This document shows positions 4,615 to 33,159 of a stretch of 64,000 nt of DNA, piece after piece (positions within the stretch are counted from its first letter, which is position 1; every line of letters starts with the position of its first letter). Made by a program: the position numbers and the translations under genes. The notes beneath the pieces are model-generated. The model was not told the DNA's origin. It saw only the letters and a list, made by a program, of their open reading frames with translations, and did no database searches. Source of the stretch: Glutinoglossum americanum (lineage: Eukaryota > Ascomycota > Geoglossomycetes > Geoglossales > Geoglossaceae); assembly GCA_020080175.1 (NCBI GenBank), contig JAGHQL010000083.1:49168-113167 (forward strand), read 5' to 3'.

Positions 4615-7600
4615 ATGACAGCCGTGTCACGCAACCCGCGGGACCCGCCTACACCCCCTCACACTTTATTTCCCGACGAGGAAGAAAGGGAGGAGCCGAA
4701 CACAATAATGGCTGGAATTGATGGCAGCAACACGCCTTCGAATGCTCTGAAAAATGTGTTGAAATCTATAGGTAACAAGCGCGATTTGGAGCCTACAAGA
4801 GTCGAGGCGAAGAACGGCAATGATACGAAACCTGGGGTCGAAGATGGCTTGGGGAGTGATCCCAGCAAGGCTTTGGATCATCCAGCTACCAGAGAGGCAA
4901 GAAGCCCAACTACGGAAGATGACCTCTCAGACGACCAGTCCGAATGGGCGTTAGAACGGGAGGAGATGCTCAAAAATGAGTCTCTGGAAGTTCGTCAGAG
5001 GAGGGGCCGAAAACATTTCCTGCAGACCACCAATTATATAAGGTGAGCTGAAATTGGAGCATGCTGATGTCTCTGGATGGATGGTAACCGCTGCTCTTCA
5101 GACTTCTAGAAAACCGTATCTCGTTTCTCGAGGACGAGCTTCGGGACCTCAGAAGGCTTCCACCTACGGAGGAGCAACCTAGGGATGACCATGGACCGGA
5201 CTCGAGGGACGTCGGCGCACAGCCGCAGAACCCTGCACCACCGCTAGTTCCCGGTGAGCATGATGGCCCTCTGATGAAAATCGCCTACCATGCTTGGGAG
5301 AATTTCCAGGAACCCACTCGTAAGACGGCGGTTATTGAGGTTCTTGTTGGTGAACCTGGAGTACCAAAGAAACTGAAGGAAGGCAGCCTCGAATTCAAAG
5401 AAGCAGCTGCCAAAAAGGCAACCGAGCTAAAAATTTCCGCGGAGACACTACTAGAGAGCAAGACGAGGCTTCCCAACAGAATACGGTATGTATCGAGCTG
5501 TCTTGGCGGCCAAGTTAATACCTATCACTGATCGATAAAAGTGTCCGCTCACCTCACATACTGAAAACGTTGAAGAAAGTGTCCTCAGTTAATCCCCAAT
5601 CTGAAGACACAGTTGTATTCCTCAGGCCCTTCAAGACTCTTGTTCACTGCGAGGAAAGCATACGTGACGAGATCAGAACGCTGGAGAAAAGGATCAGTTT
5701 GGCTAAGAAGGGGAGCGCCATAGACGGGAAGAAGCAAACTAGTACCCAAGGCGAAGAAAATTCCAAACCGGACGAAAGGCCACCTCTCATGGATTCCCAG
5801 AATAAACAAGGAACTAGAGATAGTGTTCTATCTCAAGAAGAGATCAACGGAGCAGAGGAAGCCTTGGCCCACCTTCGATTATTAGAGCTGTTCATCGACA
5901 GAGAGCTTCAATCCGTTCTTGACCTCCGGCTTCGGGTGGCAAGTGGGGACGTCAATACAATTGCATTCGATAACCTCTGGTTGCTTTTCAATCCAGGAGA
6001 CATCGTTTATAGCGAGGGACAGGCATTTGAGGTCTTCTCAACATCGGGCGGCCAGCCACTGGACAAGAAAAAAGTGCACCAATACCAAGCAGTGACAGTG
6101 GATGCCAATGGCCACCAGCTCTACCACGAACATGAGACGATGAGCCCGTTTTTTGTGGACTGCTATTATATTAGCTTCGACGGCAAAAAATACGGCCCCG
6201 TTCAAAAGACGTTTAGAATCTCATCATACGATGGCGAAAGGCCAATCACAAGGCTTCCGGTATGCCCTGCGGCATTCTTTGGCGATGACCGGAGAAAGCA
6301 CTTAGTTGAGAGAGGAAAATCATTTCTCTCCCTCACGGAAGATGGTGTAGATTTCGTAAGCGATCTTTAAAGTCATATACGGTGGCATAATGTCTAATGG
6401 TCACTTTCAGGCGCACAGGCAATATGATGGCTTAGTGTCAACACCAGATGGGGAGAAAGAAGAAGTATGTAGCTTCCTGCAGGATCCGATAGACTGGTGA
6501 AACTAACAGCATTGCACCTAGGTTAATAGCCGCATAATCATCGATTTTACTACCGCATTTAGAATGAACCCTAAATGGTACCCGGGACTTGGTCTTAAGG
6601 GCGCGTCAGCTGCAGATCCTAGGGAAATGTCAAGCTGTGGGGGTCTCTTAGGCAGCCACGAGGATTTGCTTTCTTGTTATCACTGCTATTACGACTGGAT
6701 ATGGGAAGACCACCGATTGGAACAACTGCGAGATTCAAGCTATATGGAGCGGTTGGATTCAAAACTTAGAAGGCTTCAACACGCTGACAACCCAACAGAC
6801 GAACAAGTCATTTTACTCCCGGATACTGTTTACGGGTTTGTTCTCCGCAACCGGAGGTGGGGTAGGCATTTTTCGCGCGAACATGTCCCCTTACATCCCT
6901 TAGCTAATGCTCTCGTTTAGTCGCTTTCACTGTTGACTATATCAGCGACCTTGTCCGGACCGAAGAAAACTTCAAGGACTTGGTGATTCCATCAAGGCAC
7001 AAGAGGATCGTTGAGGCGCTTGTGGAAACGCATTCACGAGGGTCCAAAGCCGCTAGCCGGAAGGAACACCCCCAGAAGGGAGTTACTAGACACGCTACCG
7101 ATCTCGTCCGCGGAAAGGGGGATGGGATAATCATGTTATTGCATGGTCCCCCCGGAGTTGGGAAAACCTCCACTGCTGAATGCGTGGCAGAACTTTGCGA
7201 AAGGCCGCTATTTCAGATAACTTGTGGTGACATCGGCACCGAGCCTAAAGATGTGGAAAAGAACTTGGATGACAACTTCCGTCTAGCTCATAGATGGGGA
7301 TGCGTTTTGCTATTAGACGAAGCCGATATTTTTCTCACCCAGAGAGGCCAAGAAGACCTGAATAGGAACAGCCTTGTATCGGGTAAGCATGTAACTCTGG
7401 TACTTGGATATTTGGGCTGATGTAGGCGATAGTATTCCTAAGGGTTCTGGAGTATTATCCTGGGATTCTGTTCCTAACAGTAGGTCACCGTCACCGTCTT
7501 TGATTTCACTAGAGCTTCATTAATCAGAACGAAAGACAAACCGTGTAGGACTCTTTGATGAAGCCTTCAAGTCGCGTATCCATGTCAGCCTACAATACCC

Positions 7601-8468
7601 CAAGCTAAACGAAGAGTCTTCCATGCTGGTATGGGAAAATAACATCCGCCGAGCAAAGAGAAGATACGATGTAAATGACAAGAAAGTCATGAAATTCGCG
7701 CGACAATCCTTCGACCGTCTGCACTGGAATGGCCGACAAATCAAAAACGCCTTCCAAGTCGTCATTGCACTCGCCGAATTCGACACGCTCAACAACTCAA
7801 AGCGCACACAAACACCAGAATCAAGAAAACCCGAAAAAAAGCCCGAAAAGGTCGCACTAAAACTCAAATGGTTCAAGAAGGTCACAGACGCATCAACTAG
7901 TTTTGATGAGTATATCGAAGAAATGTACGGTGGTACCGAGGAAGAGCGCGCGCTCAGATTTCGCTATCGATACGATGGGTATAAATCCAAAGAGTATGAA
8001 GAAACCCAGCGAAGCAAACCCCATTCAAAGCCAGCGCCCCCGCCAAAAAGGCCACTCGACGACTCCTCTACCTCTTCCTCCTCCTCCGACTCATCTACCT
8101 CCTCCACTGACAAAGAACCCCAGAGAGCCACAAAGAAAAAGAAAGCCAAGGATAAGGATTCAGCAAAGTTGAAGGAGAAAGCGAAACAGGGTCATGGCAA
8201 GGCATTTAGTGCGTCGAAGAGCGATAAGAAAAGGGAAAAGGGAAAGGAGGAGAAGAAGAAGAAAGTTGAGTCTTCAAGCGAGGAGGAGTCTGAGACTGAG
8301 GAAGAGAGTTCTGAAGAGGAAGAGGGGGGCGGGGGAAAGAGGGAGATGTTGGTGGTGGGAGGTGAGGAAGAGGAAGAGGAAGAAGAGGAAGAGGAAGAAG
8401 AAGAGGAAGAAGAAGAGGAAGTAGTGGTAAAACCCAAGAAGAGGGCTAGCCGGAAATTGAAGAAGTAG
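4615..8468 (+). CDS. AAA-family ATPase with DUF7025-like N-terminal region and acidic/lysine-rich tail
   Basis: Eight exons keep one frame: 4615-5042, 5102-5485, 5542-6355, 6411-6464, 6522-6861, 6921-7382, 7433-7479 and 7536-8468, about 1153 aa. After a charged, disordered N-terminus comes a region from about residue 420 to 535 starting FNPGDIVYSEGQAFEVFS and holding FFVDCYYISFDG, typical of the DUF7025 part of fungal AAA proteins. The AAA core follows, with Walker A GPPGVGKT near residue 748, Walker B VLLLDEAD near 802, and the sensor region LFLTTNRVGLFDEAFKSRI rebuilt across the last intron. The C-terminal lid is followed by a Ser-rich stretch, Lys/Glu blocks and a long glutamate run ending KPKKRASRKLKK. 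Such proteins are predicted unfoldases or remodelling ATPases of unknown substrate. A shorter product could start at the ATG at 4708. Confidence 0.85.
8340..8425 (+). repeat. GAG/GAA microsatellite encoding a polyglutamate run
   Basis: A purine-only tract built of GAGGAA and GAAGAG units lies inside the last exon of the AAA ATPase and encodes an unbroken run of more than twenty glutamates. Length variation by slippage would change the acidic tail in steps of one residue while keeping the frame. Confidence 0.8.
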
Positions 8469-10548: not shown

Positions 10549-12693
10549 ATGGAATCGGCATCTACTGCTCGACACGCAAATGAAAGAGTGGAGAATTCTC
10601 CAGAGAATGACCTAGTAGGTAATATTGCTATAAATCAGGCTGAGCCCAATGACAGCTCAAATGCTACAACAGCTCCTGCGGCAGGTCACGATGCGGGCGG
10701 CAATGGCATTCGAGAATCACAACGCAAGTCTCGTTTCTTTCCACTATCCGACATCCTCTAACCGGCCAAGTATAGATATAGCCCCCTTCCATCTGTATAG
10801 AGTCGGCGATAAGGAGCGGAGAATAGAAGGCCTCAAGCGGTTAAACTATCGGCCTCTATTGCTCCAAAACTGGGTATTGCTTACCCACATAGCCATAATT
10901 CTCGGCTGGACAGGCTTTCTTATCTTCCTTCTCTTTCGCGCCCGCCCGTTAAGGGGCAACCCATTCACTCTAGATGGGTACCTTTGGGGATACATATCCA
11001 CCGGCATCAGATTTCTAGCGCAGCAGCAGTCTGTAAACCTGGGAAAGATCATGCCATACTGCAGCATGGCGTCCTCGCCAGAAGATCGTGGAGGTGCCAA
11101 AACGGTTACCGCTGATTACTATCCATACGACTGGCCTGTCCCAAGATTTCGACTTTGGCGTAACGGGCACCGGTTCTACTTCCTCACCGAGCTCTCAACC
11201 TTTCTCAGCACGTTCGCGCTGGTGCAGTTTTCCAGTAACATCCTCCGGGGGGTGTGGGGTGGCGATGACTTCCTGGGGTATCTACCGAATAAGGGCATTG
11301 TGTATATCGTTATTGCCTGCAATGCCGTGCTCCTCCTAAGCACAGTTTCTACGTTTCTATGGCTGTGCACCCACGACACGGGACTCTTTGCTGAACCGGG
11401 CTCTCTCGCTTTCCTGATCGGCATGCTGCAGAATTCAAATGTCCTCGACGACTTCTCTGATATGGACCGGGACTGCTCCGCTCACGAGATGCGGAAGAGG
11501 CTCAAGGGGAACTACTACAGCATAGGATATTTTAGGAGGAGTTCCGGCTCTAATATCGTTTATACCATCGGCATAGCTGACGATGACCTCACTCCTAAAA
11601 CGCGAAGTAAGGTCTTTCGGATGAAACCACGTGAGAAAGCCAGAGCTAACCGGTAATAGTGAATCCGGGCTCGCAAAACGGCGGAGATGCCCCTAGGACG
11701 CCTTCGCTGCAGCAGCCGGGCTTCTTGCCATGGTTTCTAAGCCCCCTCTGCGTTACGTTATGGATAGGACTCGCTATCGCCGCACTTAGCGTAGCATTGA
11801 CCCTATTAGTCCACGACAGCATCCTGGACCAAGGCTTCCCGCCCCATGCGCCCACCCGAGCCTCGCCAGTCCTCCAAATGTCAGCAGCTGGGTTCCTGTG
11901 GAGCTTTGTACCAGCTTACGTCGCTGACCTCTACCGATTACTATGGAAAAACACGGATTTGTTCTATCGCATCGTGCAACCTTATGCGGATCTAAGGAGC
12001 CCACGTCCAGCAGAGGAGTCCAGCCTGATGTTGAATTATACTGCATGTCTGCCTGTTGTGATCACCCTAAAAGCGGCGTGGAATGGGCACTGGAAGATCG
12101 CTTTGGTGTCTCTGCTTTCCTTCTTGTCATCGTTCACAACGTCGTTAGCGGCTAACATGTTTTATTTGGACTGGTTCTCGGACCATCAACATGGGCCGGT
12201 TTACCCCTGGATTGTCGTTAATCGGATTCCTTTTTTGATCATGACGGCGTATTTTGGTATCATTGCTATTGCGTTCTCGATTCTGATGCCTGATCGGAAA
12301 AGGAGGCTGCCGCACGATATCGAGACTCTGGCGGATCATATTAGTCTGCTGTGTCGAAGCAGTCTACGGGGGTGGGAGGCGTTCAGCCTCGGATCGGCTA
12401 TGAAGAAACCGAGGGAAGATAACTTCCGAGGAAAGTGGTTAGGCAAGCTGAAGGCAGCCAACCCACTTGATCTATTTCGTGATGGAGAATATGAGAGGGC
12501 GGTGAAGGGGAAGCTTGCAGAAGAGAGTAACGGAGATCCCGGATGCGAAAACACGGAAGTCGCACTTGGGGTATTTAAGCACGAAGATAATACCTGGCAC
12601 ATGGGAATTGATTCTCGGGGAAAACTGGAGTTCCTAATCGATGGACCACACAGGGGGCAGAGCCTCTGGAAACGATTCGTACGTAGGAAATAA
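10549..12693 (+). CDS. DUF3433-like multi-pass membrane protein
   Basis: The main exons are joined by a clear 53-nt intron at 11607-11659 with branch GCTAAC. It fuses two adjacent open frames that are separated only by stop codons lying inside that intron. Exon 1 carries hydrophobic segments around VLLTHIAIILGWTGFLIFLLF, FYFLTELSTFLSTFALVQF and GIVYIVIACNAVLLLSTV. Exon 2 repeats the theme with a segment ending in a short LLVHDS loop, a W-rich block with RIVQPYADLRSP, and a GHWKIALVSLLSFLSS helix; this order is characteristic of fungal DUF3433 proteins. The 5' end is uncertain. One model starts at 10549 (MESASTARHANER) and needs a short 43-nt intron at 10728-10770, giving about 682 aa. The other starts at the ATG at 10649 without that intron, giving 663 aa. 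The function of the family is unknown. Confidence 0.75.
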
Positions 12694-17076: not shown

Positions 17077-18816
17077 TTAGGCTTTGCATTCCTCCAGCTG
17101 CTTAACAATGTGCCATCTAAACTCCTTCAGAAACTCCATCTTCGGTTGCACAACCTGGCCCTCCTTTACCTCGAATTTATCGGATATGCAAGCAAGGACA
17201 ACATCACGATATATAGCACCCATTGTCACGCCCAAGCGGGGTATGTATGTTTCCAGAAGATTCTTACGTAGAGTATGGCGATCATCCTCACGCTTGAAGT
17301 CTTGGAGAGGCCGCCAAGCACCTATCTCAAAGAGAACGAGTCCTAGAGCGTAAATGTCGTACTCCCGGCGATACTTGAGTTCTGATGTCTCATCTAGGGT
17401 ATCGCGGTCTTCCGCGGTCTGATAGTCGGGGTGGCGATAGAGATAGTCGGACTCGGGCGGTTCAGTGTACTCGCTATCCTGGTCCAGGCGAGAATATTCA
17501 AACCCGGTAAGGAATGGAGAGAGCACATCAATTTCGCCATCGCGTTTTTTGAAAAAAAGGACGTTTTTCGGGTTAATGCTCTTGTGGAACCAATTGGCAC
17601 AATGAAACTCGTACACGGAGTTGGAAATAAGGGCCGCAAGGCTAAACCTCTCCCCAAGGAGAAGTTGTTTGTCCTTCTTCCGCGCATCGTACAGCATCCT
17701 CAGGGAAATCGGATTCGAGAGGGGATCGGACCCAGGCGGGTGCCCGAATACAAAGCCAAAGCGATCTTCCTTGCTGTCATCAAAGAACTTCAAACAATTC
17801 AATGTCAGAAACCCCTTGGGCTTCGGGTCCTGATGGAGAGCTTGCGCAATATTCTCGATCCGTGTCAAAAGCCTCTTGAATTTGTCCGGATTGGATTTGA
17901 GATCTCCTTTATATTTTTTCCATTCAATAAGGATACGGACATCTCCTGTAGGAGAAGTGTAGGTACCAGTCACTGCGATTGGGTTTTCCGAATCGATTGC
18001 GATCAGTGAGGGAGATATGGAGAGGTTCTCAGGGCTCAACCGACTTAGCAACGCAGAGCCTGCCCGGATAGCCACTTCCTTTGCCGTAGCCATTGTATAT
18101 ATGCTGGCGTTCTGAGACTTTGCTGCCTCAGCAAACTTGTGCAATACACGCCACTCTTCGGTGGAGGTAAGCTCCTCAACTACGGCCCGGCCGACGTCTT
18201 TGCAACATGGATATGGGAGAAGAGCAAAAAGCGAATCGTTTATATCTTTGAGTTCCTTGACAAGTCGCTCAGACCTTTCCTGCCCAGTCACAGCCCAACG
18301 GATTTTCCCTCGTGAGGGGATGAGAGAGGCCATGCGCTGAAGCCAAGAAGTCATCTCTGCTGTCCCACTTTGCGAAGCAATAATAGCTGCGGTCACTGGA
18401 GGCGGCAAAGTACTGACACCGGCCGGGGCAGCTAATGCAGGACCTGCTGCAGTGCTAAGGCCATAACGTGACTTCAAAACCTCCAGATCGCTAAGCAAGA
18501 CTTGGATAGCCGATGAAAGGAGGACCAAGCTAGCATCCTCCAGGGGGGTCTTCTCTTTAATCTCGCTGATCTGGAGGTATTCTGCTACATCAGGAAGAGT
18601 AAAGGTATCTGGTATCCCGAGCGCATCGCCCCATCGCGAGAGCCTACTTTCTTCAATAACAAGCTTTGCCTTCAGAATGGCCGAAGTATCGTCAAAAGAG
18701 AGTGCTCCGGTGTAGGTGCTAAACGCTCTCTTTGCAATATGGAATAGTTGCAACGATAGCCCACCAATCCCAATATTTAGGGAAGCAATCCCCAGGCTGT
18801 GGTCAAAGGAAGACAT
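17077..18816 (-). CDS. HeLo domain-pseudokinase fusion (MLKL-like architecture)
   Basis: A single exon encodes 579 aa. Residues 1 to about 210 fit the HeLo domain of HET-S/LopB-type fungal cell-death proteins: a hydrophobic N-terminus (LGIASLNIGIGGLSLQLFHIAKR), then the pattern KAKLVIEESRLSRWGDALG at about residues 49-67, then helices reaching ELKDINDSLFALLP near 187-201. From about residue 285 a protein-kinase-like fold follows, with VRILIEWKKYKG as a strand and EYDIYALGLVLFEIGAWRPL as the F-helix region. The catalytic loop reads HKSINPKNVL (411-420), so the HRD aspartate and the catalytic-loop lysine are replaced. TGF (437-439) stands where DFG is expected. It should therefore be a pseudokinase. 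HeLo domains act at membranes and execute cell death in known family members; control by the kinase-like part is inference. It is divergent from the kinase-ankyrin gene starting at 19081. Confidence 0.85.
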   Translation of the reverse strand: MSSFDHSLGIASLNIGIGGLSLQLFHIAKRAFSTYTGALSFDDTSAILKAKLVIEESRLSRWGDALGIPDTFTLPDVAEYLQISEIKEKTPLEDASLVLLSSAIQVLLSDLEVLKSRYGLSTAAGPALAAPAGVSTLPPPVTAAIIASQSGTAEMTSWLQRMASLIPSRGKIRWAVTGQERSERLVKELKDINDSLFALLPYPCCKDVGRAVVEELTSTEEWRVLHKFAEAAKSQNASIYTMATAKEVAIRAGSALLSRLSPENLSISPSLIAIDSENPIAVTGTYTSPTGDVRILIEWKKYKGDLKSNPDKFKRLLTRIENIAQALHQDPKPKGFLTLNCLKFFDDSKEDRFGFVFGHPPGSDPLSNPISLRMLYDARKKDKQLLLGERFSLAALISNSVYEFHCANWFHKSINPKNVLFFKKRDGEIDVLSPFLTGFEYSRLDQDSEYTEPPESDYLYRHPDYQTAEDRDTLDETSELKYRREYDIYALGLVLFEIGAWRPLQDFKREDDRHTLRKNLLETYIPRLGVTMGAIYRDVVLACISDKFEVKEGQVVQPKMEFLKEFRWHIVKQLEECKA

Positions 18817-19080
18817 GGTAAAATCATCCGGCAGCAGATTGCGGACCGAATTGGTGCGGAGGTGGTGGGCCGATGTCGAAAGAGGTTGGGGATCGGGCGG
18901 TCACGCGATAATATGTTAGCGTTATTGCCTTGGCTTGTGTAACAACGGCGCGGGGTCCAAAGGCGCAACTGGGTAAACTTTGGTTTACGACTTTCTGCTA
19001 CATAGAGCTGAACACACATTTCGTGTCAGTCAAAAGCTCTCTTCACCCCACACCTTCTTATTCTCCGATACTCCGCCGAC
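18817..19080. promoter_or_regulatory. Shared bidirectional promoter of the HeLo-pseudokinase and kinase-ankyrin genes
   Basis: Only 264 bp separate the two start codons, which point away from each other, so both promoters must overlap here. The last 50 bp before the ATG at 19081 are pyrimidine-rich, as is common upstream of fungal starts. No transcription-factor site was assigned. Co-expression of the two genes is the natural inference. Confidence 0.55.
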
Positions 19081-22000
19081 ATGAGCCGGGTTGAAGAGTT
19101 ATGGGGTGACATCCTCACGGCGAAGACTCATCCAAGTAGTAACGTTTGCGCCACTCTCGGAAATGGAGAGCACCAGGCCGACCTAATCTCGTTCATATCA
19201 AATTCCTACGAGCTAGACATTCCATTGCTAGACACGAGCAGTCCTAATATCTTGCGATGGCTTGGTGGAGGTACCTCTTCCACTGTCAGCTTATTCCGCC
19301 TAGGGCACAAACAGGACCTCATTACGTGGAAGAGCGCAAAAGCCTGGAAAATTAACGAAAGGGAAGAAATTGCTATCAAAAGAGCTGTCACCCTCCAAGA
19401 TAGGAAGGCCATGCTCAACGAGCTCAGGATCCTTTCTCACCCGCCATTACGCCAACATGCAAATATCATAGACATTATGGGTTGGTCGGTCAAGACTGAT
19501 AACAGCCCCTTAGAGCCACTACTCATCGTCGAAGCATCACCGTGTGGGGATCTTACCAAATTCATCCTAGACAGGGTGTCCAGCAATACCGGTAGCATCG
19601 CCTCCGTTTCGATTGATATAGCTCGAGGCTTGTACGCTCTGCACTGCTCTAGTGTGATTCACGGTGACATCAAAAGTGCCAACGTCCTCCTATTCGCCAA
19701 TCCGCAAGGGGCGGGCGAACCATATACAGCCAAGCTATGTGACTTTGGCTTTTCTGTGATAGCCTCCGACCGCTCTGAGAACACGAATGCAATATCACTC
19801 CCACGAAGTGTTCCTTACAACGCTCCAGAATGTAGAGCAGGAAAAGAGATTCCATTTTCAAGCGCTTACCTGGCAGATATATACAGCTATGGCATGGTGC
19901 TGTGGGATATCTGGTCCGGCGGCTGGATTTTGAGGAATGATAAATGGCAGCTTGAATCCCGGAAACAAAGCGACACGCTGATGGAAGAAATGCATCGCTC
20001 AATAAACAACCAGGCCGACCTCCAGGATTTACAGAAGACGTTAATATGTGATATACTCTCCGGATGTCTTCGAGGAAAACCTGAAGAGAGGACCCGGTCA
20101 CTTGAGCATTTGCTTCCAAAGCTTGAAAGTATCACTCCTGGAGGTCATGGAGTGGACCGAGATACCTTATCTGACAAACCTCCTACAAATAAGACAGCGC
20201 TCGCTTCGGTTAACAGCGGAAAACGTGTTGCTGAACTAGCCCCTCTCCCTGCAGATGTAAGTATATATGTGCATATATACCACTCAAGGTTCTATACTTG
20301 GCAATATCTGACATACGATAGGGCAACATCCTGGTTCAGTCAACGCTCACTCTTGGACGCCGTGCCCGAGCTGCCATTCTAGATAGTCTCGAAACGAGAG
20401 TAAAGGCAGATCATCCGGCAGGACTTTTCGCTGTTCATTACCTGCTGTCGTTCTGCTACCTAACGGGGTATGGAGCCGATCGCAACTTGCCTCTGTCTGT
20501 TGAACATATGGCCAAGGCTGCGAAGAATGGCTCGCGTAAGGCTCTTTCGATACTTCCACGGTACTGCTTCGTTCTGGGTGTGCCATTCCCGGCGCATGTA
20601 GTAGGTAGCTCAGAGAGTGGTGCTATGGCTTCTATAGCTCAACTTGAATTAGCATACGGATATTCAAGTCATCCCAGAATTGCAGCTGATATTCGCGGTG
20701 CTGCAGTCTCGCTCTCCCTATTGGAGCTTGGTAAACGCAAGGGGTTGCATTTGAGTACCTCCCGTCCTGTACTAAAAGATAAGCCCGAGGAGGATACAGA
20801 CCCCACCCGCTCTAACGCTCAAGTTAAGGCCATCAAAGACCACGGATATACTCAGGTGTTAAGGGAACAGATGGACAAGGTCGAAAACAGAATTGACGCA
20901 AAGAACTCTGACAACAGCCCCGACATAAACTACCAAGACGGCGACGGAGACTCACTTCTACATTATGCCTGCTTTTTTGGATTTGCCGAAGCAACAACCC
21001 ACTTGTTAGGGCGAGGGGCGAAACCCTTTGCCAACAACGAGGGCATAACTCCACTTCACTGGTTAAGTCAATTCCCTCACGATTCCATTGAGGCAATTCT
21101 GGGTATGCTCCTTAAGTGCGGAGCCGATTTGGATGCCGCCTCAGCTGGCACTGGAATATGTAGCCTTCATCCAGCCAACTGGCTTCCTCCAGGGACGCCC
21201 TTATCCTGGGCCGTGGCGGCCAGGAGAAAAGATATCGTGACATTACTTCTATCTCATCAAGCTGACCCCCTACTCCCCGCCTATAAATCCGCGCTGGCGA
21301 TTGCTGCGAACTATCATGAGAACGAAATACTGGAGCTTCTCTTAGATCATCTGACAACGACCGCTAGGAGTGCGACTAGCGACAGCCAGGAGCTTAGCTT
21401 GCTCGGAATGGCTATAAAATCGATACCACTCACAGATAGGATCATTCGCCATGGCGAAGCATATAAAACCGCAGCTGCTCTTACAATAGGCCTCCTTGTT
21501 AGTAGAGGGTACGATGTTGCTGCGCAAGTCATCCACGGAGCGACTTCAAGTGGGCTCAGGTACTCGATCCTCAATGACCATTCTGAAAGTAATATGGATA
21601 TTATGCAATGCCTACTCGAGAATGGTGGCTCTGCTCCTGAAGTACTAGAACTAGAGGATCCGACTGACTTCCTTCCTCCAATCCACTGTGCTATGTCAAA
21701 CGCCGCAAGGCATCTATTCAGAATATTAATGGAGCATGGCGCAGACGTGAACCACGCAGCGGGAGTTCGAAAATACACCTGCCTGCATGCATGTTCAAGA
21801 AGCGACCCCGACGATTCTCTTTATTTCGCAAGAGAGCTTTTAGAAGGCCATGCACTAGCCGTAGTACCTGAACTCGAAGCGGGAGATATCGACGGCGCCA
21901 CACCATTCATGCTTGCATGCCGTTTCCAGCGCGTCGAACTCGCAAAATATCTCCTCAGCAAAGGCGCAAACCCCTACGCCACCGACAATGAAGGCTATAC

Positions 22001-22463
22001 TGTCACTAGCTACTGTCTCTCCAAATCCTCCTTCACATCTCTTTGCGAAATCCTCCCCGACCTCGCTGATCACAACTTCATCTGCCACCCGGGGATGGGC
22101 GTAACAGCACTCCATCACCTCACCGAATGGGACGAAGTCACTGAACCCGATGCACTAATCCTGCTCAACGAAATTTTCTCCCATTGTGCTCCCGACCTCG
22201 TAAATATGCCCACGCTCTTGAATGGGAGAACAGCCTTATTCTCTGCGGTAAGGAGAGGGAATGTGAAAATGGCTAAGCTGCTATTGGAACATGGAGCTGA
22301 TTTTGGTGGGATAAGGGATAAGGATGGGATTACAGCGGGGGAGTTGGCACTGGCGATGTATCTTGGGTATAACGAAGCGGGGATGAAGGATAAGGAGGAG
22401 AGGTTAGGCGCTGTTTGCCAGATACTCGGTGAATATGGGAACGGGTTCATAGAGTTAGCCTGA
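19081..22463 (+). CDS. Protein kinase with C-terminal ankyrin repeats
   Basis: Two exons, 19081-20256 and 20322-22463, are joined by a 65-nt phase-0 intron and give about 1105 aa. The kinase domain keeps every key element: glycine loop GGGTSSTV (residues 62-69), AIK lysine K100, helix-C glutamate in NELRIL, catalytic loop VIHGDIKSANVLL with D196, DFG at 221-223 and APE at 248-250. The HGD variant of HRD is seen in other active kinases. After a linker with TPR/SEL1-like helices (LFAVHYLLSFCYLTGYGADR), ankyrin repeats run from about residue 600 to 1080, for example GDSLLHYACFFGFAEATTHL, GATPFMLACRFQRVELAKYL and GRTALFSAVRRGNVKMAKLL. The order resembles animal RIPK4/ANKK1. It shares a promoter region with the HeLo-pseudokinase gene, which makes that protein a candidate partner or substrate (inference). 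Confidence 0.88.
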
Positions 22464-24523
22464 CCGACCAAAAAAACAAGTCCGCGCCAGCTCTAAAAAA
22501 CCATCTTGCTAAGTAGTTGCCGTACTCTTATACATAACCCTTGGGTTTAGTTTTGGTTCGGCTCTAGTAAGTGGCAAACTCGAGCATAATATTCCCACCC
22601 CCGGGTACCGCTAGATGCAGTATAGGGGCGTGACTAGACAATATAGAGAAAACACCGCAAATTGCCACAAAAAGTAATCTTATTTACTCCACTGCTATGG
22701 AGACTCCACAAAACGGAGTGATTACGGAAACCACAGATAACTAGGGCTAACGTCGACACCGAGGATAACCATCATCAGTGGACGCCGTCACCCTATAGAA
22801 ATATCCTATAATATATGAATTAATCTAAGCCCATATAAATACCATCTTAAGAGACTTTTGCTGGATGGTGTCTGGCTGCTATGCCGCCCTGCGGAGGGCT
22901 CCAACTTTTTTTTTTGGCGGCTGGGCCGCGGCTGCTCTCTGGCGTATAAGCAAATGTTCTCATATATCGATAGTCAATAGACAACACCTAGCGTAGGCTA
23001 ATAATTGGATCAACTCGTTCCTTACCTACATTGAACGCCTACCTTGTTCCCTCATTCCATGGACTACTCTGAATTATGCAGCTTCGTCCAGGCATTTAGG
23101 TGCCGGGTTGACGCTCTAGAAAATAAAAGGACCACAAAACTTCTAGTATCTCGCCTTCAGCCAAAAACTAGAGATCACTCGCGAACTAAGATCACGGGTG
23201 TTTTTGCTTCTCCCAATTAAAACGGTGCTATTTCCGAATGCTACCCAAAGGGAGTGGTCATTGTGAAAGATATAGATATGATGTCGTATATGCGCAGCCG
23301 TGCTAAGCCTTCTCTCGTTTCGTTGACCGCATCAATCTTCTCGTAGTCGCTTGAGGATTTTCACGAGCTTATTTAGGCGTTCGCTAGGCGAGCTTGATAG
23401 TAGGGTTAGTTACTCGTATAGCACATTTTTAGATTCTTATTTACCTCGTGTGGCACAATGTTTACTGATCCAGCACAAATTTACTGCTGCCTGTCAAATT
23501 TTGCGCAGCGGTGAACATATTCACCTCACCTTTTTAAGTCATGCCACTTGATCGATCGCCAAACGTAATAGCTAAAGCTACGTATATTTGGGCTCTCTGG
23601 TAGGCTTCATTTAGGCTATTCCACACTAGGCTTTTGGCGAGGTGGGATATCGATGGACTTCTTAAATTAATGTTTCGTTAAGAGTGCGGATACTTTCAAT
23701 ATGAGCCTCTTGTCATGACAAGCAGTATCCTCTAGGCATTTGGAGCCCGCATTGATCCCCTATGAATTGAAGTCGCTAACTTTATGGGTAGTTAGGCCCG
23801 AAAGTTGGAATATGCAGCACGTGTTATACAAGCAAATAAGTTCTAAAAATGTGCGATACCAGTAATTATTCTTTGAAGGAATGGAGTTGACCTGTAGGGA
23901 ACGTAAGTATGCCGTTGACCTACAGATCGCGTTAAATTATAACGTAAACTATAGAGCTAGTTTTAAAGAGGGTAGAGATAGCAGAGGGATACGTGCCGAC
24001 ACAATCAGAAAAGTTCATACGAATTCGCCACTAATGAGATCCACACATCAGTGCGGTCTATATGCTCGCACGATCTGGAGGTCATGCGAATGCGGTAAAA
24101 GAGCTTATCTCACACACCTGGATAGGCCAATATGCGAGGTTGCGAGAATGCAGCACTCATAACCCACATCTAGCCAATAGCAACCCTACATACCTCGCCA
24201 TCTCGTATAAAATCCTATCTATTTATTATTCTATATTAACCCGTTCTATTAATTCCAGCTACACTACTATACCCTATCAGAAACCAACGTGCGAACATGC
24301 GGGTCACAAAGTGGTCGGCTGGGACGTAATGGCGACGTAATCCCGGGTTAATAAAGATGTGTATATAAAAGGGCGAGCTGGCGCCCTACCTCCCAGTCAT
24401 AGACACAGCGCGACATTCCTGTTCGGACTATAGTGCAAAAATTTTGTCCTCCCTTGAATAGCATCCACTAAGACACCTCGACGACATACATTAGGAATTA
24501 AACGCCAAATTTAATCCGCAAAA
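22464..24523. other. Gene-free, AT-rich stretch with decayed fragments
   Basis: No intact gene is seen. A short frame near 24045-24115 reads like an ankyrin repeat fragment (VYMLARSGGHANAVKELI) without start or continuation. The rest, especially 22,700-24,350, is AT-rich with many stops and TA-rich words, consistent with mutated repeats. A poly-T run lies near 22905. Confidence 0.45.
24051..24115 (+). pseudogene. Possible ankyrin-repeat relic
   Basis: One frame reads ISAVYMLARSGGHANAVKEL, which fits the helix pair of an ankyrin repeat. Neither side continues the pattern and stops are close. It may be a scrap of a decayed ankyrin or NLR gene. Chance similarity is possible. Confidence 0.25.
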
Positions 24524-25005
24524 ATGCCAACTGGGAGCTGCTTCTGCGAGAAAGTCAAGTATGAGTATTCTGGCGATCCTGCCATGAAGGTAACCAAGCA
24601 TTTCTCTAACCTTTTGCTCTACACCCACTGTCCACTCTGCTAAGGCCTTGTTAGGCTACCTGCCATTGCCTTGCCTGCCGCAAGATCAGCGGCAGCTCCA
24701 ACACCCTCAACTTGCTGGTTCCCAAAGATAGGTTCCAGGTGACTTCCGGCACGCCCAAAGAGTTTTCCAAGACCCACGAGAGTGGCATGGAATTGACAAT
24801 CTTCTTCTGCGACAACTGCGGGAGCGTTATAAGCAAGGAGGGCGATGCGGATGCGTTTCGTGGTGTGGTGATTGTTCAAGCTGGAACGCTCGATGATGTG
24901 GAAGGACTTGATATGGGAAAGCCGGGGGCGGAGCTGTATGTTAAACATCGTGCCTCTTGGCTTCCCGAAGTCGCTGGTGCGGGGCAGATGCAGGAGTTCT
25001 CCTGA
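24524..25005 (+). CDS. GFA/CENP-V domain protein (glutathione-dependent formaldehyde-activating-like)
   Basis: Two exons, 24524-24589 and 24655-25005, are joined by a 65-nt phase-0 intron and give 138 aa, the usual length for a single-domain GFA protein. The zinc ligands expected for the fold are present: SCFC at residues 5-8, CHCLACRKISG starting at 25 (created exactly by the splice), and FFCDNCGSVI later in the chain. The C-terminal AELYVKHRASWLP matches the family end. Family members bind zinc and some act on S-hydroxymethyl-glutathione or similar small thiol adducts; the substrate here is unknown. The gene ends about 145 bp before an assembly gap. Confidence 0.9.
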
Positions 25006-25110
25006 TCAGGATGAATAGGATAGTTAGTGTTTTAGTGTTGGGTGACAGAGGACCCTGTTTCTTCCAGTGTGTGGCTTCTTGGGAGCAGGAGGCGGGGGAG
25101 GTGGGGGGTG

Positions 25111-25149
25111 GGAAGGATCTGTTCCTGTTTACGTTAGGAGGGCTTTCAG
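25111..25149. repeat. 39-bp direct repeat, left copy, next to the gap
   Basis: The 39 bases just left of the N run recur exactly at 25280-25318. The two copies bracket the gap and a foreign-looking segment. This is typical of one contig end present twice around a bad join. Confidence 0.85.
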
Positions 25150-25159
25150 NNNNNNNNNN
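25150..25159. other. Assembly gap (10 N)
   Basis: Ten undetermined bases mark a join between assembled pieces. The true distance is not known from the sequence. Sequence to the right (25160-25274) is unlike its surroundings. Confidence 0.99.
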
Positions 25160-25274
25160 GTGATCCACTGCCGTACGCGATCGCCGAAGCGCTTCGCGAC
25201 GAGCTGCGTGTACTCCTCGAACCATCGCGGCGAGTCCGCGTTCAGCCAACCGCCGCGGCAGTACAGCTCGTACG
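25160..25274 (-). pseudogene. Bacterial-like GH1 beta-glucosidase fragment, probable contaminant or misassembly
   Basis: Read on the minus strand, one frame is open throughout and contains CRGGWLNADSPRWFEEY, followed by a segment ending GDRVRQWIT. That is the stretch just before the conserved NEP of glycoside hydrolase family 1 enzymes. GC content and codon use (mostly C or G in third position) are bacterial in style and contrast sharply with the flanks. Only about 38 residues are present, between the N gap and the second copy of a 39-bp fungal repeat. A genuine transfer is much less likely than a chimeric join. Confidence 0.75.
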
Positions 25275-25279
25275 GGGGG

Positions 25280-25318
25280 GGAAGGATCTGTTCCTGTTTA
25301 CGTTAGGAGGGCTTTCAG
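25280..25318. repeat. 39-bp direct repeat, right copy
   Basis: Identical to 25111-25149. After this copy the fungal sequence simply continues. Deleting 25150-25318 would give a seamless join, which supports an assembly artefact. Confidence 0.85.
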
Positions 25319-26420: not shown

Positions 26421-28719
26421 CTACGAACTCACCCTCATATGAAACCTCCCGCCCTCCAATTTCTTTAGCCTCCTCCCCAGTTCCTCATCATCCGCATGGA
26501 AAAATGTCCGATGTTGCTCGTGAATTGTCCTTGCCTCCCCCGTACGGTGCTGCAGTGATGACAAGAACGATTTCTCCCTTTTCCCAGCGTCCTCTGAGCG
26601 TTTCTGGGAGATGGTGCGGGAGGATTCGTGGATGGCGTTGTCAAGGAGGGTGCAAGAGACTTGGAATATTTCTTGGATTTGATACTGTGGGAAATTAGCT
26701 GGCGGGGTAGTGTGTATGACGGAGATAGGATGGTTGTCAACCATACCCAATTTAACTCCTTTTTAATCCACATAAATCCTATAGAATCTTCGAAATACGG
26801 CCAATTTAATGTGCTCAACGTCTTCGGCATTGCCCATGGCTTCTCTACCACCGTCCACTCCACCTTGGACGTCTCATGCGAGCTCATATCATCGGGTATC
26901 ATCCTGATAGTGTAGAAACTGGTCTTAGACGCTCCGTGGAAGAACTCGTAGGTGTCCTGGGAGGCCTTGAACCAGAGAAGCGGGTAGGAGGCCATGCGTA
27001 GGACATGCGTGAACGTGTTATGGCCATCGAGGAAGGGTTGGGGGGCTTTCCAGGCGAGGCGGGAGCAGTGGATGGGGAGGGTTTGGTTGGGAGACGGGAA
27101 GGGGTAGCTTGAGGGTGGCGGGGGGGGCGAGGGGGGGAGGGGGATGTCTGGTGTCGGGATGGGGTCGGCGGGGAGTTCAGCGGGCAGTTCTGTGGGGGTT
27201 GAGGCGGGTGGATATGGTGTAGTTCCGCGCTTAGTGCTTCGTTCTTCGTCCTCGTCAGGATCGGAATCTATCGATTGAGGGTCCTCCTCGAGCCACTGCA
27301 ATGAGACTGGGGGGCGGAGAGCTGGCTTTCCTGGAGTAGTTGGGTGTGGTTGAGGATAGGGAGAGGAGGCACCAAAACGGTCTTTATACTTCTCGTCCAT
27401 CCTCTGTTTCTGCTTTTTCTTGAGTTCTTCCCTCTCTTCTTTCTTTCTTGCGAATTCATGTAAGGCCTCCGTGTTCTTTTGAGTCAATGATTTGCGGAGT
27501 TCAGCGAAAGCATTCAGTCGTACATCGCACTGCACCTTCTGCTCACCCAGCTGGGCCATTTCATTATTTAATCGTGTGAGAGCTCGACCATCTATTTCGA
27601 GCCAGCCGTTTTCTCGTTTCTTAAGCCGCTCTTGGATCGCTTGAAGCCGTTCTTCGAATTTCTTTCGATCTGTCTTACATCTATGCTCAGATGCATCCAA
27701 GGAGGAAATCTCTTCGTCGAAAGAGTTCTTTATTTTAATCTCTTCAGCGATTTCATCGCCGCTATTGTCGCCGCCGTCGTCGCCGCTGTCAATAGGAGAC
27801 TCCGTGCTTGTAGTGTCGTGTTGTGTGTGATTCGGAGAGGGGGGTTGCACCCACTGAGTGAAAATATAGTCGATGTTTTTAAGAACACGTTCCTCCCAAA
27901 TTGGGTATATAGCGCCAAGAGTTTTTTCGAACGAGCCAGCCCATGCGACCGAGTTTGGAGTTTTCTCAAGTGGAGAACTGGGCTCCTTCGAGTCGGGATA
28001 TGCACCCGTCTGGTGTTTGGCTGGCGGCGAGGGAACAACTTCCGATAGGACTTCTGCTGTTGTATGGGAGGAAGTTGTATGCGGGTTCAGTTGAGCGGAA
28101 GAGCTTTCTAGTGGAGACTGTGGTGCCGCTTTCTTCTCCTTGTTTTTCTGCTCAATATCGCGAAGCACTCTTACAGAGCGCTGCTGGGATCGTAGTAGGT
28201 TCCCTAATGCTTGACGGTCGTCTTCCTCGAGCTGCCGACTACTATTATTAGACTCTGTTGAGAGAAAATGCGATTGAGTCTAACTTACTGATGCTGTGCT
28301 ATGCTAAGAGTCTGCAGCATAAAAATTAAAGTAATCTTTAAAGAATCTAGCTTGGCTTTGATCGCTTTGACTTTCTTCTCCCGGAATACCCACGCAACCT
28401 TGGTCTTTAGTTGTTGTTTCGGTACGCCGGACGTCTCCTTGATCATGTGGTTGATCCGCCTGAACAGGTCCTTGCATTTCTGGATGACTGCCAGCACGCC
28501 CAAGCTGAGATTATCGGAATACACTCTCTCTGGCGCTTCAAAGACACTCCCGAGCTGATCAACTACAGGGACGAGGTAGCTTAGATCGCTGGCAATGTCT
28601 TCAATCTCCTCTTGAGCGGAGCCAATGGTCTCGCAGATATTGTGAAGTGCAGATGCCAGTTTCGTCCCCGCCGCGACGATCCCGATTACACCAGCAGCGA
28701 TACTCAATGGATCGGCCAT
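26421..28719 (-). CDS. Helo_like_N (fungal STAND N-terminal) domain protein without a nucleotide-binding domain
   Basis: Three exons, 28719-28289, 28241-26747 and 26684-26421, keep frame and give about 729 aa. The first 140 residues begin MADPLSIAAGVIGIVAAGTK and match the Helo_like_N domain found at the front of many fungal STAND proteins: a hydrophobic start, then helices with DIASDLSYLVPVVDQLGSVF. In place of a NACHT or NB-ARC domain there is a long charged region with coiled-coil character (about residues 290-400, rich in K, E and R), a Pro-rich linker, and a compact domain around PLLWFKASQDTYEFFHGASK. I do not recognise this C-terminal domain. The C-terminus is highly charged (TFFHADDEELGRRLKKLEGG). 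The N-terminal family suggests a signalling or membrane role; the rest is unknown. Confidence 0.75.
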
Positions 28720-31293
28720 TATGACGAAGGGAAATCGAACAATTGACGCCCCGATGCCCTCAGCCTATCGGGGTTTAGTGATGCATCCACGCCGAGCTCC
28801 ACCCGAACAGGATTCCGGCGATGGCTTCACGAGGCTGAACTCCTCGTTAGATAGAGGTTGAGGCTAAATTCGCTTACATAACTTGATGATATATATATTC
28901 ATGAACCAATCATGAGCCCAACACACTGCCTAGGGTCTTGGCAAGCACCGAGCACGGTTCGCCTGCATATTGTAAAACAAAGATGCAGAACAACCACCAT
29001 GACTAACCCTCCGAGGACCCAAACGGAGCACCAAGACTAGTATGCAACAGGAGAAGGCATTTCACTGACAGCAGACTTTTCGGCTGCAGTATAATAGAGA
29101 TGGGTGGGAGTAGGCATTCTAGCCAATCGAATGTCGTCTCATGCTGAGTATTTGTGATATCACTGCATCGCGATACATTTAATTGATTCCACCCACGCGC
29201 TCTTGGTAGAGATGGTAGGTCACCAGGGCTGAAAGAGCCGCTCCGCAGGGATTATGGAGGATTTGCGAAGGTCAAGGCAGGGGGAGTACTGACTTCGACC
29301 CTGTGGGATCGCAACTTATAGGGGGTTAAGAAATTAGCCGGGCAAATCGGAAGCGATAACTGGCCGGTGTTGGCAAATAGAAGCTAACGCTCCCACACTT
29401 TTGTTAGCTACCCGATTGGAAAGCTAGGGTTGGTCGGTCGGAGATACAGATGCCTCTTTCACTCTACCTCGACTTTCGATAGCTATTCGAGGCATACTGC
29501 ACCTTTTTTGCTTGCTCGAGCGGTAGTCACAACTTCTAGTCAAAAGTTATTGACCTTGCTTTCATCTAGATGGCGCTAGGTCCAAAGAAGAGGGACTTAG
29601 GGTTTGGGGGTACACAATTAGATTCACTGTTCTTCGGCAACTCTTATCTCTACGTATGCTACCGTCTTTGCGACTCACTAACTCCGTCTGGTATTTCCCG
29701 ATTATTGATCCCTACCTAATTCGACGCAAGGGAAGGATATAAAAAGGAACATTCTTCTTAACTCTTGGTACTCTTTACGCTCCCTAGTTACCCGATTGGG
29801 TACGTTGACGCATGTTGAGATGTGGGTTGGAGGCGGGTCGACGTGGATATGTGTATTAACGTGGCGGGTGCAAGCTGCGTTGGGAATTTACTCTCTTGGG
29901 ATTATTTTCGGGATAATGGGATCTCGTGCGGGGTCTTGCAGCAGGGCGGCGGTGGGACACCGGCCCACGGGGCGTCAACTGGGTGTGTGGCTGTGACTGT
30001 GGTGACAGGTAGTATCAGGGAAACGCACATTTTAGTGGCTCCTCAGCTATAAGAGCTCTAGGAAAGCCACTGATGGGAATAAGTTCCCTATCTTCTAAAC
30101 ACAAGGCTATGTTGTTGTCATAACCTGCTGCTCCGATACAGTCATCTCCAGTCGCGGCACGCTAAAACCGGCAAAGTCAACCATTTTACCGATAATCTCT
30201 AGTGTGATGGTAACCATTTGTGACGGTTCTATCTAACCCTCTTCCTCTCCCTCTTCCTCCTCCCAGATACCGAGGTATGGCCGGAATGTTAATATTTGCT
30301 GCGATTTAAGGAGTCCTCCTAATGCCCAAAATTCCCTATTGAACGCTCGAACCGGCAACAAATCCCACCCAGATCAGGAAATATTAAAGCGGACCACACG
30401 CGTCTTGGAGGGGGTTCAACCCTTTTCAGGAATCAGGCGTTGCTGAGAGCCTATCAAAAGAGAACAAACTTGTTACAGGTTGGTGTGCAATTCTCCCGAT
30501 TCCCGATTTTAGGGTTGTTTCCTTCAATGCCTCTAACAGTTTTTTGCAGCTGCTCCAACCTACCTTTCATACAGTCGTAGAGGACCATAACCCGGACCTA
30601 GATTTAGACACTAATAACGTCTCTCTTGCAATGCGGAAATGCTCGCTAGAAACCTGTTCCAAGCGATATCGCAATCTAGAATGCTGTCGACTGGATTCAG
30701 TAGTGTTATGAGGCCTAAGCAATATATTAAGGTATTCCCGGTGCCAACCCATAAGAATGTAATCTCCAATATGTTGGTGTCGACCCTTGCCCCTTTTCGT
30801 TTGTTTATATACAGTCATACCAACCTCTCATCCTCCCATGTGCATCCCGTGTGCATAAGCGCCCCCAGGTTCGCCCATTGTAATAACTAAACCAATTCAA
30901 TTCATCCCATGACCACTGCACTAATTTACATAGCCTGCTCGTAGCACAATAGAGCTGTCATTGCCACCGAAGTGAAATCCAGTAAGTATAGGGTTACAAC
31001 AACAGCCAGCATGCCGGATTCACCTAGAAATGGAGCTCTTAAGGGAAGCCTTCAGGGCACTATCCCTAAACTGAGCGCGATCCTCTACCGGGAATTGTAA
31101 CACTAGGGACCCTAGAGATTACCAAGAATGCCAAAGCGAAAGCTAGAATCCTGTTGGTAAGAAGATGCTGAACGAGATAACTGTTATAGTTCTGCGCTCA
31201 GGAGAGGATCAGCCGTGTTGTTATGAGCGGGTTGCGGGCGCGATTCTGCGCATGCAACGCGCAATGGGAGTATTTTGGTTAGCGGCCATTTGT
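28720..31293. other. Gene-poor stretch
   Basis: No gene can be supported over about 2.6 kb. A small plus-strand frame at 29822-30052 (76 aa, with CINVAGASCVGNLLSWDYF) is fairly well composed, but it has no recognised family and no signal peptide. I leave it unassigned. AT-rich words and stops dominate the remainder. Confidence 0.4.
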
Positions 31294-33159
31294 TCAGCTG
31301 GCTCCCCAAACACCCAATGGGTCGCTCTCTTCAACATTTCCGGTCATACCACGCCGCAGCCTTTTCATCCTCTTGATCACCAGTCCAACAGATGCAGGCC
31401 CAATAATCGTGCATAAGACAAGTGCCCAAGCCACAACAAGGTAGATCTCTGACCTTCCGCCTGTGGAGGGACCCTCTGTGGAGTCTGAGAATATCCCGGC
31501 ACTCTCTGCTAATGATCCGATGAGGAAACCGATTTCCCCTCTTGAGACCATAGCTAACCCAAGGATGGAGGCCGGGTAAATGGACAAGGGCCTCGATATC
31601 CGGAAGTATTTCGGTCTAGCGGGGCCTGAGGTCTGTTGCAGGTCTTCCGATGAGAGGGGCGCCATCCGCCTTTGCGTCTCCCGCCCTGTTCCGAGTCTCT
31701 CTTCTGGTAATCTAGAGTTGTCCGAATGCAACACAGGATTTCCAACCGAACCCGCCCCCCTCCTTAGACCCGGAAAACGCAATCCCGCTAACGGTGACAA
31801 CTTCAGCAGCTTCGGAGAGTTCGGCCAACTAAACGAAATCCGTGCAAGCCATAAACCGGTGAGAAGTTTCCCCAGAAACATCAGTATCGCGTAAACGGTA
31901 CCACGCCACACAATAGCCCTAGCAAATAACTTCGTTATAGGTATGGAGAACCCAATTGACGCCTGACTTGTAATCAACATAAGATCCCAGAATATTAGAA
32001 GGGCTTAGTCTGTACGCACGAAGAAGAAAGGCTTCAGTATTCTGCTAAGTACCACTGAGTAGTAGTCCCTAAAAGTTGACTGCCCGGTTGATGAGGTATA
32101 TGCCAATGTGATGTCGGTTCCATCGCTCGTAGGTAGGTGCTCTTTGATTGGAGTCACCCCTGTATTGCCTTGAACTGAGAGGTCGCGTCTACCCACACCA
32201 ATACCATCTTTGTTTGGGCGATGCGGAATATCACTGTCCCACCAACTGATCGAAGCTCCCGCAAGATAAGCAGCAAATAGGGAAGATGTTCCAGCAAGAG
32301 TCGCTCCGGCCGCCATGCCAATGAGAATGAGAGTATGAACAATGAGAGCCGTATATCTGTATTGAAGTATCCAGTTCAAGACAGTAGGTGAGCTATTTCC
32401 CAGTCGGCCATTCAGCCAGAGGGTCAAGGGCTTAATAACGAAGCAGCAACTAAGCAGTAGTACGAAAACCAGACCAACAGAGACAACAACCGGCCTAACC
32501 ACCGTAAGACTACTGAAGGATGAAGACGAATTTCCCAGGTTTGATATGACTTGAACCATGATTAAGCCAACAACATCATCCATCATTGCCGCACTAGTTA
32601 GTATGGTCCCCAGCCTGGTTTCTGTCAGCCCGCTAGTACTAAGAAGCGTAAAGGTGGTTCCGAGGCTAGTGGAGCACAAAGCCGCACCTGCAGCAAACGC
32701 CTGAAGTGGCGTTGCAACCATGATAGCCGATAAGACGAACGAGAGCGCCACCGGCAATACAATTCCAGTGACTGCTACAGCAATCGAGAGCATTACATTG
32801 GCCTTGACGGATGAAAACGACATCGAAAGTCCGCCTAGGCCAGCAATGTCAACGCGATTGCACTTTAATATCACGACCCCCTGATGTGTCTAGTAAAATG
32901 CATCACCTTCAAACACTATCAGAATAAGCCCCAAATACCCCATCTGTACAACCACCTCTTCGGCCCCCACACCCAGCCATTTTGCTCCAGGAGTGCCCCA
33001 CGCGACACCGATAAGCACTTGACCGAGAAGTCCACAATAGATCCAGCTGTCCAGCAGATGGTTCACGATATTGAGGAGGAGGAGAAACGAAGATTGGATC
33101 AGGATTATACGGATTTCGGGCTGGTGGAAAGGCAGAGCGGCGATGGCGGGTTCCGACAT
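31294..33159 (-). CDS. Monovalent cation:proton antiporter (CPA family)
   Basis: Three exons, 33159-32907, 32834-32020 and 31962-31294, sum in frame to 578 aa. Both splice joins fall in conserved places. The first recreates GLILIVFEGGLSMSF and the second recreates LKPFFFASIGFSIPI, both hallmarks of Na+/H+ and K+/H+ exchanger-type transporters. Further family marks are GQVLIGVAWGTPGAKWL, SLGTTFTLLSTSGLTETRLG, AAMMDDVVGLIMVQVI (with the paired acidic residues needed for transport) and LGLAMVSRGEIGFLIGSLAE. About a dozen hydrophobic spans cover the protein apart from a hydrophilic loop around residues 300-345 and another near 420-470. It should exchange Na+ or K+ for protons at a membrane. The start at MSEPAIAALPFHQPEI fits the family length. 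Confidence 0.9.

What the first reader, a model, noticed from the sequence alone, without database searches (positions are those of the whole stretch)
17077..22463. Divergent HeLo-pseudokinase / kinase-ankyrin pair: a candidate fungal necroptosis-like module
Seen: a HeLo-like N-terminal domain fused to a kinase fold lacking catalytic residues sits start-to-start (264 bp) with an intact kinase carrying ankyrin repeats. Established: HeLo domains execute membrane-directed cell death in fungi; animal MLKL couples a four-helix killer domain to a pseudokinase and is switched on by a RIP kinase; RIPK4/ANKK1 have kinase-ankyrin order. Inference: the ankyrin kinase senses a signal and phosphorylates or otherwise releases the HeLo-pseudokinase. 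I know of no described fungal two-gene unit of this kind.
Basis: partly seen in the sequence, partly recalled or inferred. Interest (0 to 1): 0.9.

Follow-up and report, generated by a model that had tools for sequence, protein, structure and literature searches.

The report
Fungal HeLo-pseudokinase beside kinase-ankyrin gene
Two neighbouring, divergently read fungal genes encode a cell-death-type protein ending in a dead kinase and an apparently active kinase with ankyrin repeats, which could be a fungal counterpart of the animal necroptosis switch, but nothing yet shows that the two work together.

Summary
Gene A (17077-18816, minus, 579 aa, one exon) has an N-terminal HeLo domain (PF14479, E=5.6e-21) and a C-terminal DUF7580 region (E=5.3e-11). 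That region is kinase-derived: BLASTP to the neighbour gives E=1e-8 and two kinase models match at about 1e-8. HRD is HKS and DFG is GFE. Gene B (19081-22463, plus) starts 264 bp away, needs one predicted 65-nt intron and encodes 1105 aa: an apparently active kinase, a weak Sel1-like stretch and ankyrin repeats. HELL domains joined to kinase or pseudokinase domains are already mentioned in a 2025 review (PMC12881547). I saw no described HeLo-pseudokinase plus kinase-ankyrin pair in the listings searched. No fungal genome could be searched, so conservation of the pairing, the decisive test, was not run. Single-sequence structure models were uninformative. The pair lies in a stretch rich in NLR-type genes, so adjacency alone is weak evidence. 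Most likely A is a HeLo executioner gated by its pseudokinase; that B is its dedicated activator is plausible, about one in three.

The parts
17077..18816 (-). Gene A, 579 aa, single exon: HeLo domain plus DUF7580 pseudokinase
18142..18774 (-). HeLo domain (PF14479), aa 15-225 of A
   Evidence: E=5.6e-21; coordinates
17089..17868 (-). DUF7580 (PF24476), aa 317-576 of A; degenerate kinase
   Evidence: E=5.3e-11; kinase matches; coordinates
17578..17586 (-). HKS, aa 411-413 of A, where kinases have HRD
   Evidence: alignment with B; position
18817..19080 (.). 264-bp stretch between the two start codons; possible shared promoter region
   Evidence: of seven promoter words looked for, only one ATTGG at 18850 was found; no promoter function shown
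19081..22463 (+). Gene B, 1105 aa after removal of one predicted intron: kinase, weak Sel1-like stretch, ankyrin repeats
19255..20097 (+). Protein kinase domain, aa 59-339 of B
   Evidence: PF00069 E=1.9e-27; coordinates
20257..20321 (+). Predicted 65-nt intron of B (GTAAGT donor, CTGAC branch-like, TAG acceptor)
   Evidence: one of 26 frame-keeping choices, chosen for its signals; not confirmed by RNA
20436..20534 (+). Sel1-like stretch of B
   Evidence: PF08238 E=0.0013, 19.7 bits against a cut-off of 30.7; coordinates
20910..22304 (+). Ankyrin-repeat region of B (limits approximate, from two reported best stretches)
   Evidence: PF12796 E=2e-36, seven stretches; PF13637

Best explanation
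A and B are a two-gene regulated-cell-death unit. Protein A is the executioner: its HeLo domain is held inactive by the fused C-terminal pseudokinase. Protein B is the upstream sensor-kinase: its ankyrin repeats receive a signal (a ligand, a foreign protein or a partner), the kinase is freed, and it binds or phosphorylates A's pseudokinase. A then releases its N-terminal helix, oligomerises and permeabilises the membrane. Shown here: the domains by profile, the loss of catalytic residues in A, their presence in B, the head-to-head layout, and the sequence kinship of the two kinase domains. From literature on HET-S: HeLo domains can kill by attacking membranes through their N-terminal helix. 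Inferred: inhibition by the pseudokinase, sensing by the ankyrins, and that B acts on A.
For: HeLo at E=5.6e-21 at the N-terminus, followed by DUF7580. Kinase ancestry and loss of both Asp in A. B has the key catalytic residues. By phmmer A scores 19.0 bits against B's kinase domain (16.1 against whole B); of 2000 shuffles of that domain 1062 gave a reported score, the best 3.7 bits. The best solved kinases gave A 13.9 bits (run with the tool's own filter settings), so A is at least as close to its neighbour as to any solved kinase found. Starts 264 bp apart, head to head. Both frames are open throughout. [quoted passage not shown]
Against: Adjacency is seen once. The stretch holds several other NLR-type or HeLo-like frames, so two such genes side by side are not surprising. 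No fungal genome could be searched for homologous pairs. The kinship of A's and B's kinase domains may only reflect a common fungal kinase group. The best single PDB hit of A is not a kinase (XopAI, E=0.085) and all its PDB hits are weak; aa 1-230 alone found no solved structure at E<=10. No phosphorylation, interaction, expression or toxicity data. No NLR domain links the two, unlike the known fungal HeLo pairs. In Sordariales only 13 of 225 two-NLR clusters are head to head (PMC12258605, passage), so this layout is not a known hallmark of fungal immune pairs.
Confidence: 0.35

Rival explanations
1. A is a HeLo-pseudokinase executioner or sensor that works without B: it acts alone or with an NLR elsewhere, and B is an unrelated kinase-ankyrin protein that happens to lie beside it in an NLR-rich stretch.
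For: Between 1.9 and 47.4 kb lie frames with NPHP3_N, DUF7708, PigL_N (HeLo-like), ankyrin, NACHT-ankyrin and NB-ARC/TPR domains. HeLo and DUF7580 are both curated Pfam families, so A's architecture need not depend on this partner.
Against: Divergent 264-bp spacing and related kinase domains fit a pair, though neither is decisive.
Confidence: 0.4
2. The pseudokinase of A is a decoy or sensor: it imitates kinases that invaders target, and its disturbance releases the HeLo domain; B is the guarded kinase or a negative regulator that keeps A off.
For: Kinase domains in nine Sordariales NLRs are argued to be integrated decoys (PMC12258605, passages). A's kinase domain resembles B's.
Against: No data on targeting by any invader; the cited case concerns CHK2-like kinases in NLRs, a different protein kind.
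Confidence: 0.13
3. A has no cell-death role: the HeLo domain here is a scaffold or membrane-binding part of an ordinary signalling pair.
For: A HeLo match is homology, not a toxicity test; the N-terminal hydrophobic stretch is moderate (best 19-residue mean there is 1.4, at aa 10-28; the highest in the protein is 1.67, at aa 96-114).
Against: The HET-S HeLo domain is essential for cell death and targets the plasma membrane (PMC12881547, passage).
Confidence: 0.1

Closest known systems
Fungal HELL proteins with a kinase or pseudokinase domain (PMC12881547, passage in section 20)
   Same: N-terminal HeLo-type domain and a kinase-derived domain in one protein
   Different: The passage speaks of HELL domains and names no partner kinase; here the domain matches HeLo proper and a kinase-ankyrin gene lies head to head
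Animal MLKL with RIPK3
   Same: Killer-type helical domain plus pseudokinase, and a candidate activating kinase beside it
   Different: A matches the fungal HeLo profile; B has ankyrin repeats; B's best solved matches are B-RAF, MLKL and IRAK4 among others, with no RIP kinase among the 60 of 817 shown
HET-S/NWD2 of Podospora
   Same: HeLo executioner beside a repeat-bearing regulator gene
   Different: A ends in a pseudokinase where HET-S has its amyloid motif, and B is a kinase with no NACHT or NB-ARC match
Plant MLKLs and Pm13 (PMC10951266, passages)
   Same: HeLo-type domain plus kinase or pseudokinase
   Different: Plant domain families; Pm13 keeps its catalytic residues
RIPK4/ANKK1 (recalled)
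   Same: Kinase followed by ankyrin repeats
   Different: Order only; no specific kinship seen in the part of the list shown, and B has a weak Sel1-like stretch between

Membership tests
HeLo domain proteins | HeLo (PF14479) at the N-terminus | tested here: met
   E=5.6e-21, aa 15-225; pairwise phmmer of aa 1-230 reached no solved structure at E<=10
HeLo domain proteins | Helical-bundle fold | tested here: inconclusive
   Single-sequence models, mean pLDDT 34.5 and 41.1; 42 Foldseek matches at E<=10, none at E<=0.001
HeLo domain proteins | Membrane-directed killing | not testable with these tools
   needs expression or liposome assay
MLKL-like executioner | Pseudokinase following the killer domain | tested here: met
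   kinase kinship; HRD and DFG Asp replaced; inactivity not measured
MLKL-like executioner | Match to an MLKL-named family profile | tested here: inconclusive
   no MLKL-named model among the six Pfam hits of A at E<=1; whether Pfam holds such a model was not checked
MLKL-like executioner | Switched on by a partner kinase | not testable with these tools
   needs biochemistry
HET-S/NWD2 type amyloid pair | C-terminal amyloid motif in the HeLo protein, matching motif in the partner | tested here: not met
   DUF7580 runs to aa 576 of 579, leaving no C-terminal tail; no amyloid-motif Pfam hit in A or in B's frames at E<=1; no exact 6-mer and one 5-mer shared by A and B. The in-house PP and sigma signatures of the literature were not available to test
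HET-S/NWD2 type amyloid pair | Partner is an NLR | tested here: not met
   B shows kinase and ankyrin, no NACHT or NB-ARC
RIPK4/ANKK1 (kinase-ankyrin) | Kinase then ankyrin repeats | tested here: met
RIPK4/ANKK1 (kinase-ankyrin) | Kinase domain closest to RIP kinases | tested here: inconclusive
   60 of 817 matched sequences shown, none a RIP kinase; best B-RAF 45.5 bits; the other 757 were not seen
Conserved two-gene fungal module | Pair adjacent in other species | not testable with these tools
   no genome held for the window; four scans of viral contigs and one of genome contigs found no relative (36)

The most novel reading that the evidence does not exclude
A dedicated fungal kinase-to-pseudokinase death switch: an active ankyrin kinase and a HeLo-pseudokinase encoded head to head, whose kinase domains share an ancestor within fungi, so that fungi hold a necroptosis-like pathway wired by a kinase and not by amyloid templating from an NLR.
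Probability: 0.22. Interest if true: 0.85.

Novelty: new variant of a known kind. Interest (0 to 1): 0.5.

Why it matters
The best-studied fungal HeLo executioners are switched on by amyloid templating from NLRs (PMC12881547, passages). A HeLo protein gated by a pseudokinase and driven by a neighbouring kinase would place the MLKL logic, killer domain plus pseudokinase plus upstream kinase, in fungi, and would make the age of kinase-controlled necroptosis testable in an easy laboratory organism.

Tried and rejected
Searches for relatives: whole A, exon 1 of B, and the conserved cores of both in viral contigs and the core of A in genome contigs matched short patterns, but none encoded a relative by tblastn. 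These scans use six exact peptide words each and reach close relatives only. Four viral-contig scans and the second permitted genome-contig scan were not used. Structure prediction of A whole and of aa 1-235 without an alignment was of low confidence; a Foldseek search with the second model gave 42 matches at E<=10 and none at E<=0.001, which says nothing either way. phmmer of aa 1-230 against solved structures gave no match at E<=10, so the solved HET-S HeLo structure was not reached by pairwise search. Whole A in the PDB gave 11 weak matches, the best a non-kinase (XopAI, E=0.085); the two best kinases, 6ka4 and 6lba (E=0.11 and 0.12), I recall as plant MLKL structures but could not confirm it, so no weight is placed on it. 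I considered that the C-terminal half of A is not a kinase and rejected it. I considered a chance reading frame and rejected it: two Pfam matches above cut-off, and a 579-codon open frame has a chance of about 1e-12 with even codon use (arithmetic). For B, only one intron with a good donor, branch-like site and acceptor is needed (donors 20201-20330 and acceptors up to 20480 were tried). B's exon 2 holds no direct repeats of 30 nt or more at seed 9, so it is not a high-identity repeat array. A paper on fungal kinases and their associated domains (PMC2838846) was searched for ankyrin, HeLo, heterokaryon incompatibility, Sel1 and NACHT: no occurrences.

Full report
What is there. The window is taken to be fungal from its gene content (HeLo, DUF7580, DUF3433, fungal AAA lid and NLR-type families); no genome is held for it and the species is not known to me. 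Gene A reads leftward from 18816 to 17077 as one 579-aa frame. Pfam gives HeLo (PF14479) at aa 15-225, E=5.6e-21, nearly the whole profile (4-202 of 205), and DUF7580 (PF24476) at aa 317-576, E=5.3e-11. Scanned apart, the two halves give 9.7e-22 and 1e-11.

Is the second half a kinase? Pkinase alone is weak (E=0.11; 0.04 for the half alone). But A388-501 aligns with B171-282 by BLASTP at E=1e-8, 34 of 118 identical, and hhalign finds the same register. phmmer, more cautious, gives 19.0 bits against B's kinase domain and 16.1 against whole B; of 2000 shuffles of the domain 1062 gave a reported score, the best 3.7 bits. NCBIfam NF047741, a bacterial kinase model, matches aa 302-498 at E=5.1e-8 (31.9 bits, cut-off 460), and PADLOC MkoA matches aa 350-518 at E=1.4e-8, over profile positions that B's kinase also matches. 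These are far below what would name the protein; they serve only as evidence of kinase ancestry. Against it: in the PDB the hits of A are all weak and the best is not a kinase (XopAI, E=0.085; best kinases 13.9 bits, E=0.11). The catalytic loop is HKS (411-413) followed by INPKN, and the DFG position is GFE (438-440), by the alignment with B; the loop Asn is kept. So A carries a pseudokinase; absence of activity is inferred, not measured.

Gene B starts at 19081, 264 bp from A's start, in the other direction. The kinase frame ends early unless an intron is removed; 20257-20321 (65 nt, GTAAGT, CTGAC, TAG) joins it to the ankyrin frame and gives 1105 aa. Other splice choices keep the frame open too (26 donor-acceptor pairs in all); this one has, in my judgement, the best signals. 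Kinase: PF00069 E=1.9e-27, with Lys100, Glu114, Asp196, Asn201, Asp221; the loop is HGD, lacking the usual Arg. Solved relatives of exon 1: B-RAF first (45.5 bits), MLKL third (44.4), then IRAK4 and others (60 of 817 shown), which I recall as mostly TKL-group and receptor kinases. Then a Sel1-like stretch (E=0.0013, below cut-off) and ankyrin repeats (E=2e-36).

Surroundings. Among the open frames that I scanned (not every frame of the window) lie NPHP3_N (1881-2726), DUF7708 (3353-3913), DUF7025 (5519-6367), a fungal AAA lid (7524-8465), DUF3433 (10634-12690), GFA (24655-25002), PigL_N (28288-28764), Na/H exchanger (32008-32889), ankyrin (35349-36473), NACHT-ankyrin (38407-40611), and TPR plus NB-ARC (44527-46500 and 46504-47388). 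This is a stretch rich in NLR-type genes. [quoted passage not shown] the two right-hand NLR-type genes here would meet the distance part. Chance neighbourhood of A and B is therefore a serious rival, and I rate it slightly above the paired model.

How it may work. See the best explanation. The shown steps are domains by profile, residues and layout. The step from HeLo to membrane killing rests on HET-S work reviewed in PMC12881547 (passages and the whole of section 18). The steps pseudokinase-as-brake, ankyrin-as-sensor and B-acts-on-A are inference by analogy with MLKL and RIPK3.

What is known. [quoted passage not shown] PMC9815663 (12 of 26 places seen) treats HeLo- and Goodbye-like domains as one MLKL-related superfamily. 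PMC5485727 (passages) notes that the amyloids of mammals and fungi do not act at equivalent positions in the pathway. PMC4986451 (12 of 20 places), PMC10197012 (passages) and PMC7889193 (passages) added no pair of this kind. I saw no description of a HeLo-pseudokinase with an adjacent kinase-ankyrin gene in the listings (one search found no paper; two searches listed 15 of 24 and 20 of 22; I judged by titles, abstract starts and the passages named here). 'DUF7580' occurs in no paper of the library. The library lacks most subscription papers, including the 2016 PNAS paper that linked HELL to necroptosis, so this is a limited negative. From memory, HeLo-DUF7580 proteins are common in ascomycetes; I could not test that here.

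Verdict. The pairing as a functional module is an attractive, untested idea. I file A as a new member of HeLo proteins in an MLKL-like arrangement, not as an MLKL; B as a kinase-ankyrin protein, not as a RIP kinase; and the pair as a possible new variant of fungal two-gene death modules.

Noticed in passing
44527-47388 (-): TPR and NB-ARC frames, probably one gene, whose TPR part has eight register copies at 126-nt steps, the seven others 68-80% identical to the reference copy: an NLR of the repeat-array type.
   Followed up: partly
38407-40611 (+): NPHP3_N/NACHT plus ankyrin gene, 735-residue open frame.
   Followed up: no
26468-28764 (-): PigL_N (HeLo-like) frame next to a 604-residue frame with no Pfam match at E<=0.01; possibly one gene with an intron. 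A second HeLo-type gene within 10 kb of gene A.
   Followed up: partly
25105-25318: Ten-N run at 25150-25159 right after a 45-nt stretch that recurs at 25274-25318, 98% identical, 169 nt on: probably an assembly gap with a duplicated edge.
   Followed up: no
23407-23868: 27-nt inverted repeat arms, 89% complementary, 408 nt apart, between gene B and the GFA frame; possibly a small transposon relic.
   Followed up: no
52001-64000: G+C is 0.51-0.63 in 2-kb steps here against 0.45-0.52 before, with HAD hydrolase and heavy-metal P-type ATPase frames; the NLR-type frames lie in the lower-G+C part.
   Followed up: no
19255-20097 (+): Gene B's kinase scores 102.6 bits against PADLOC mad6 (E=6.5e-30) and 96.8 bits against Pfam Pkinase (slightly longer query): it resembles a bacterial defence kinase model at least as well as the general one.
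   Followed up: no
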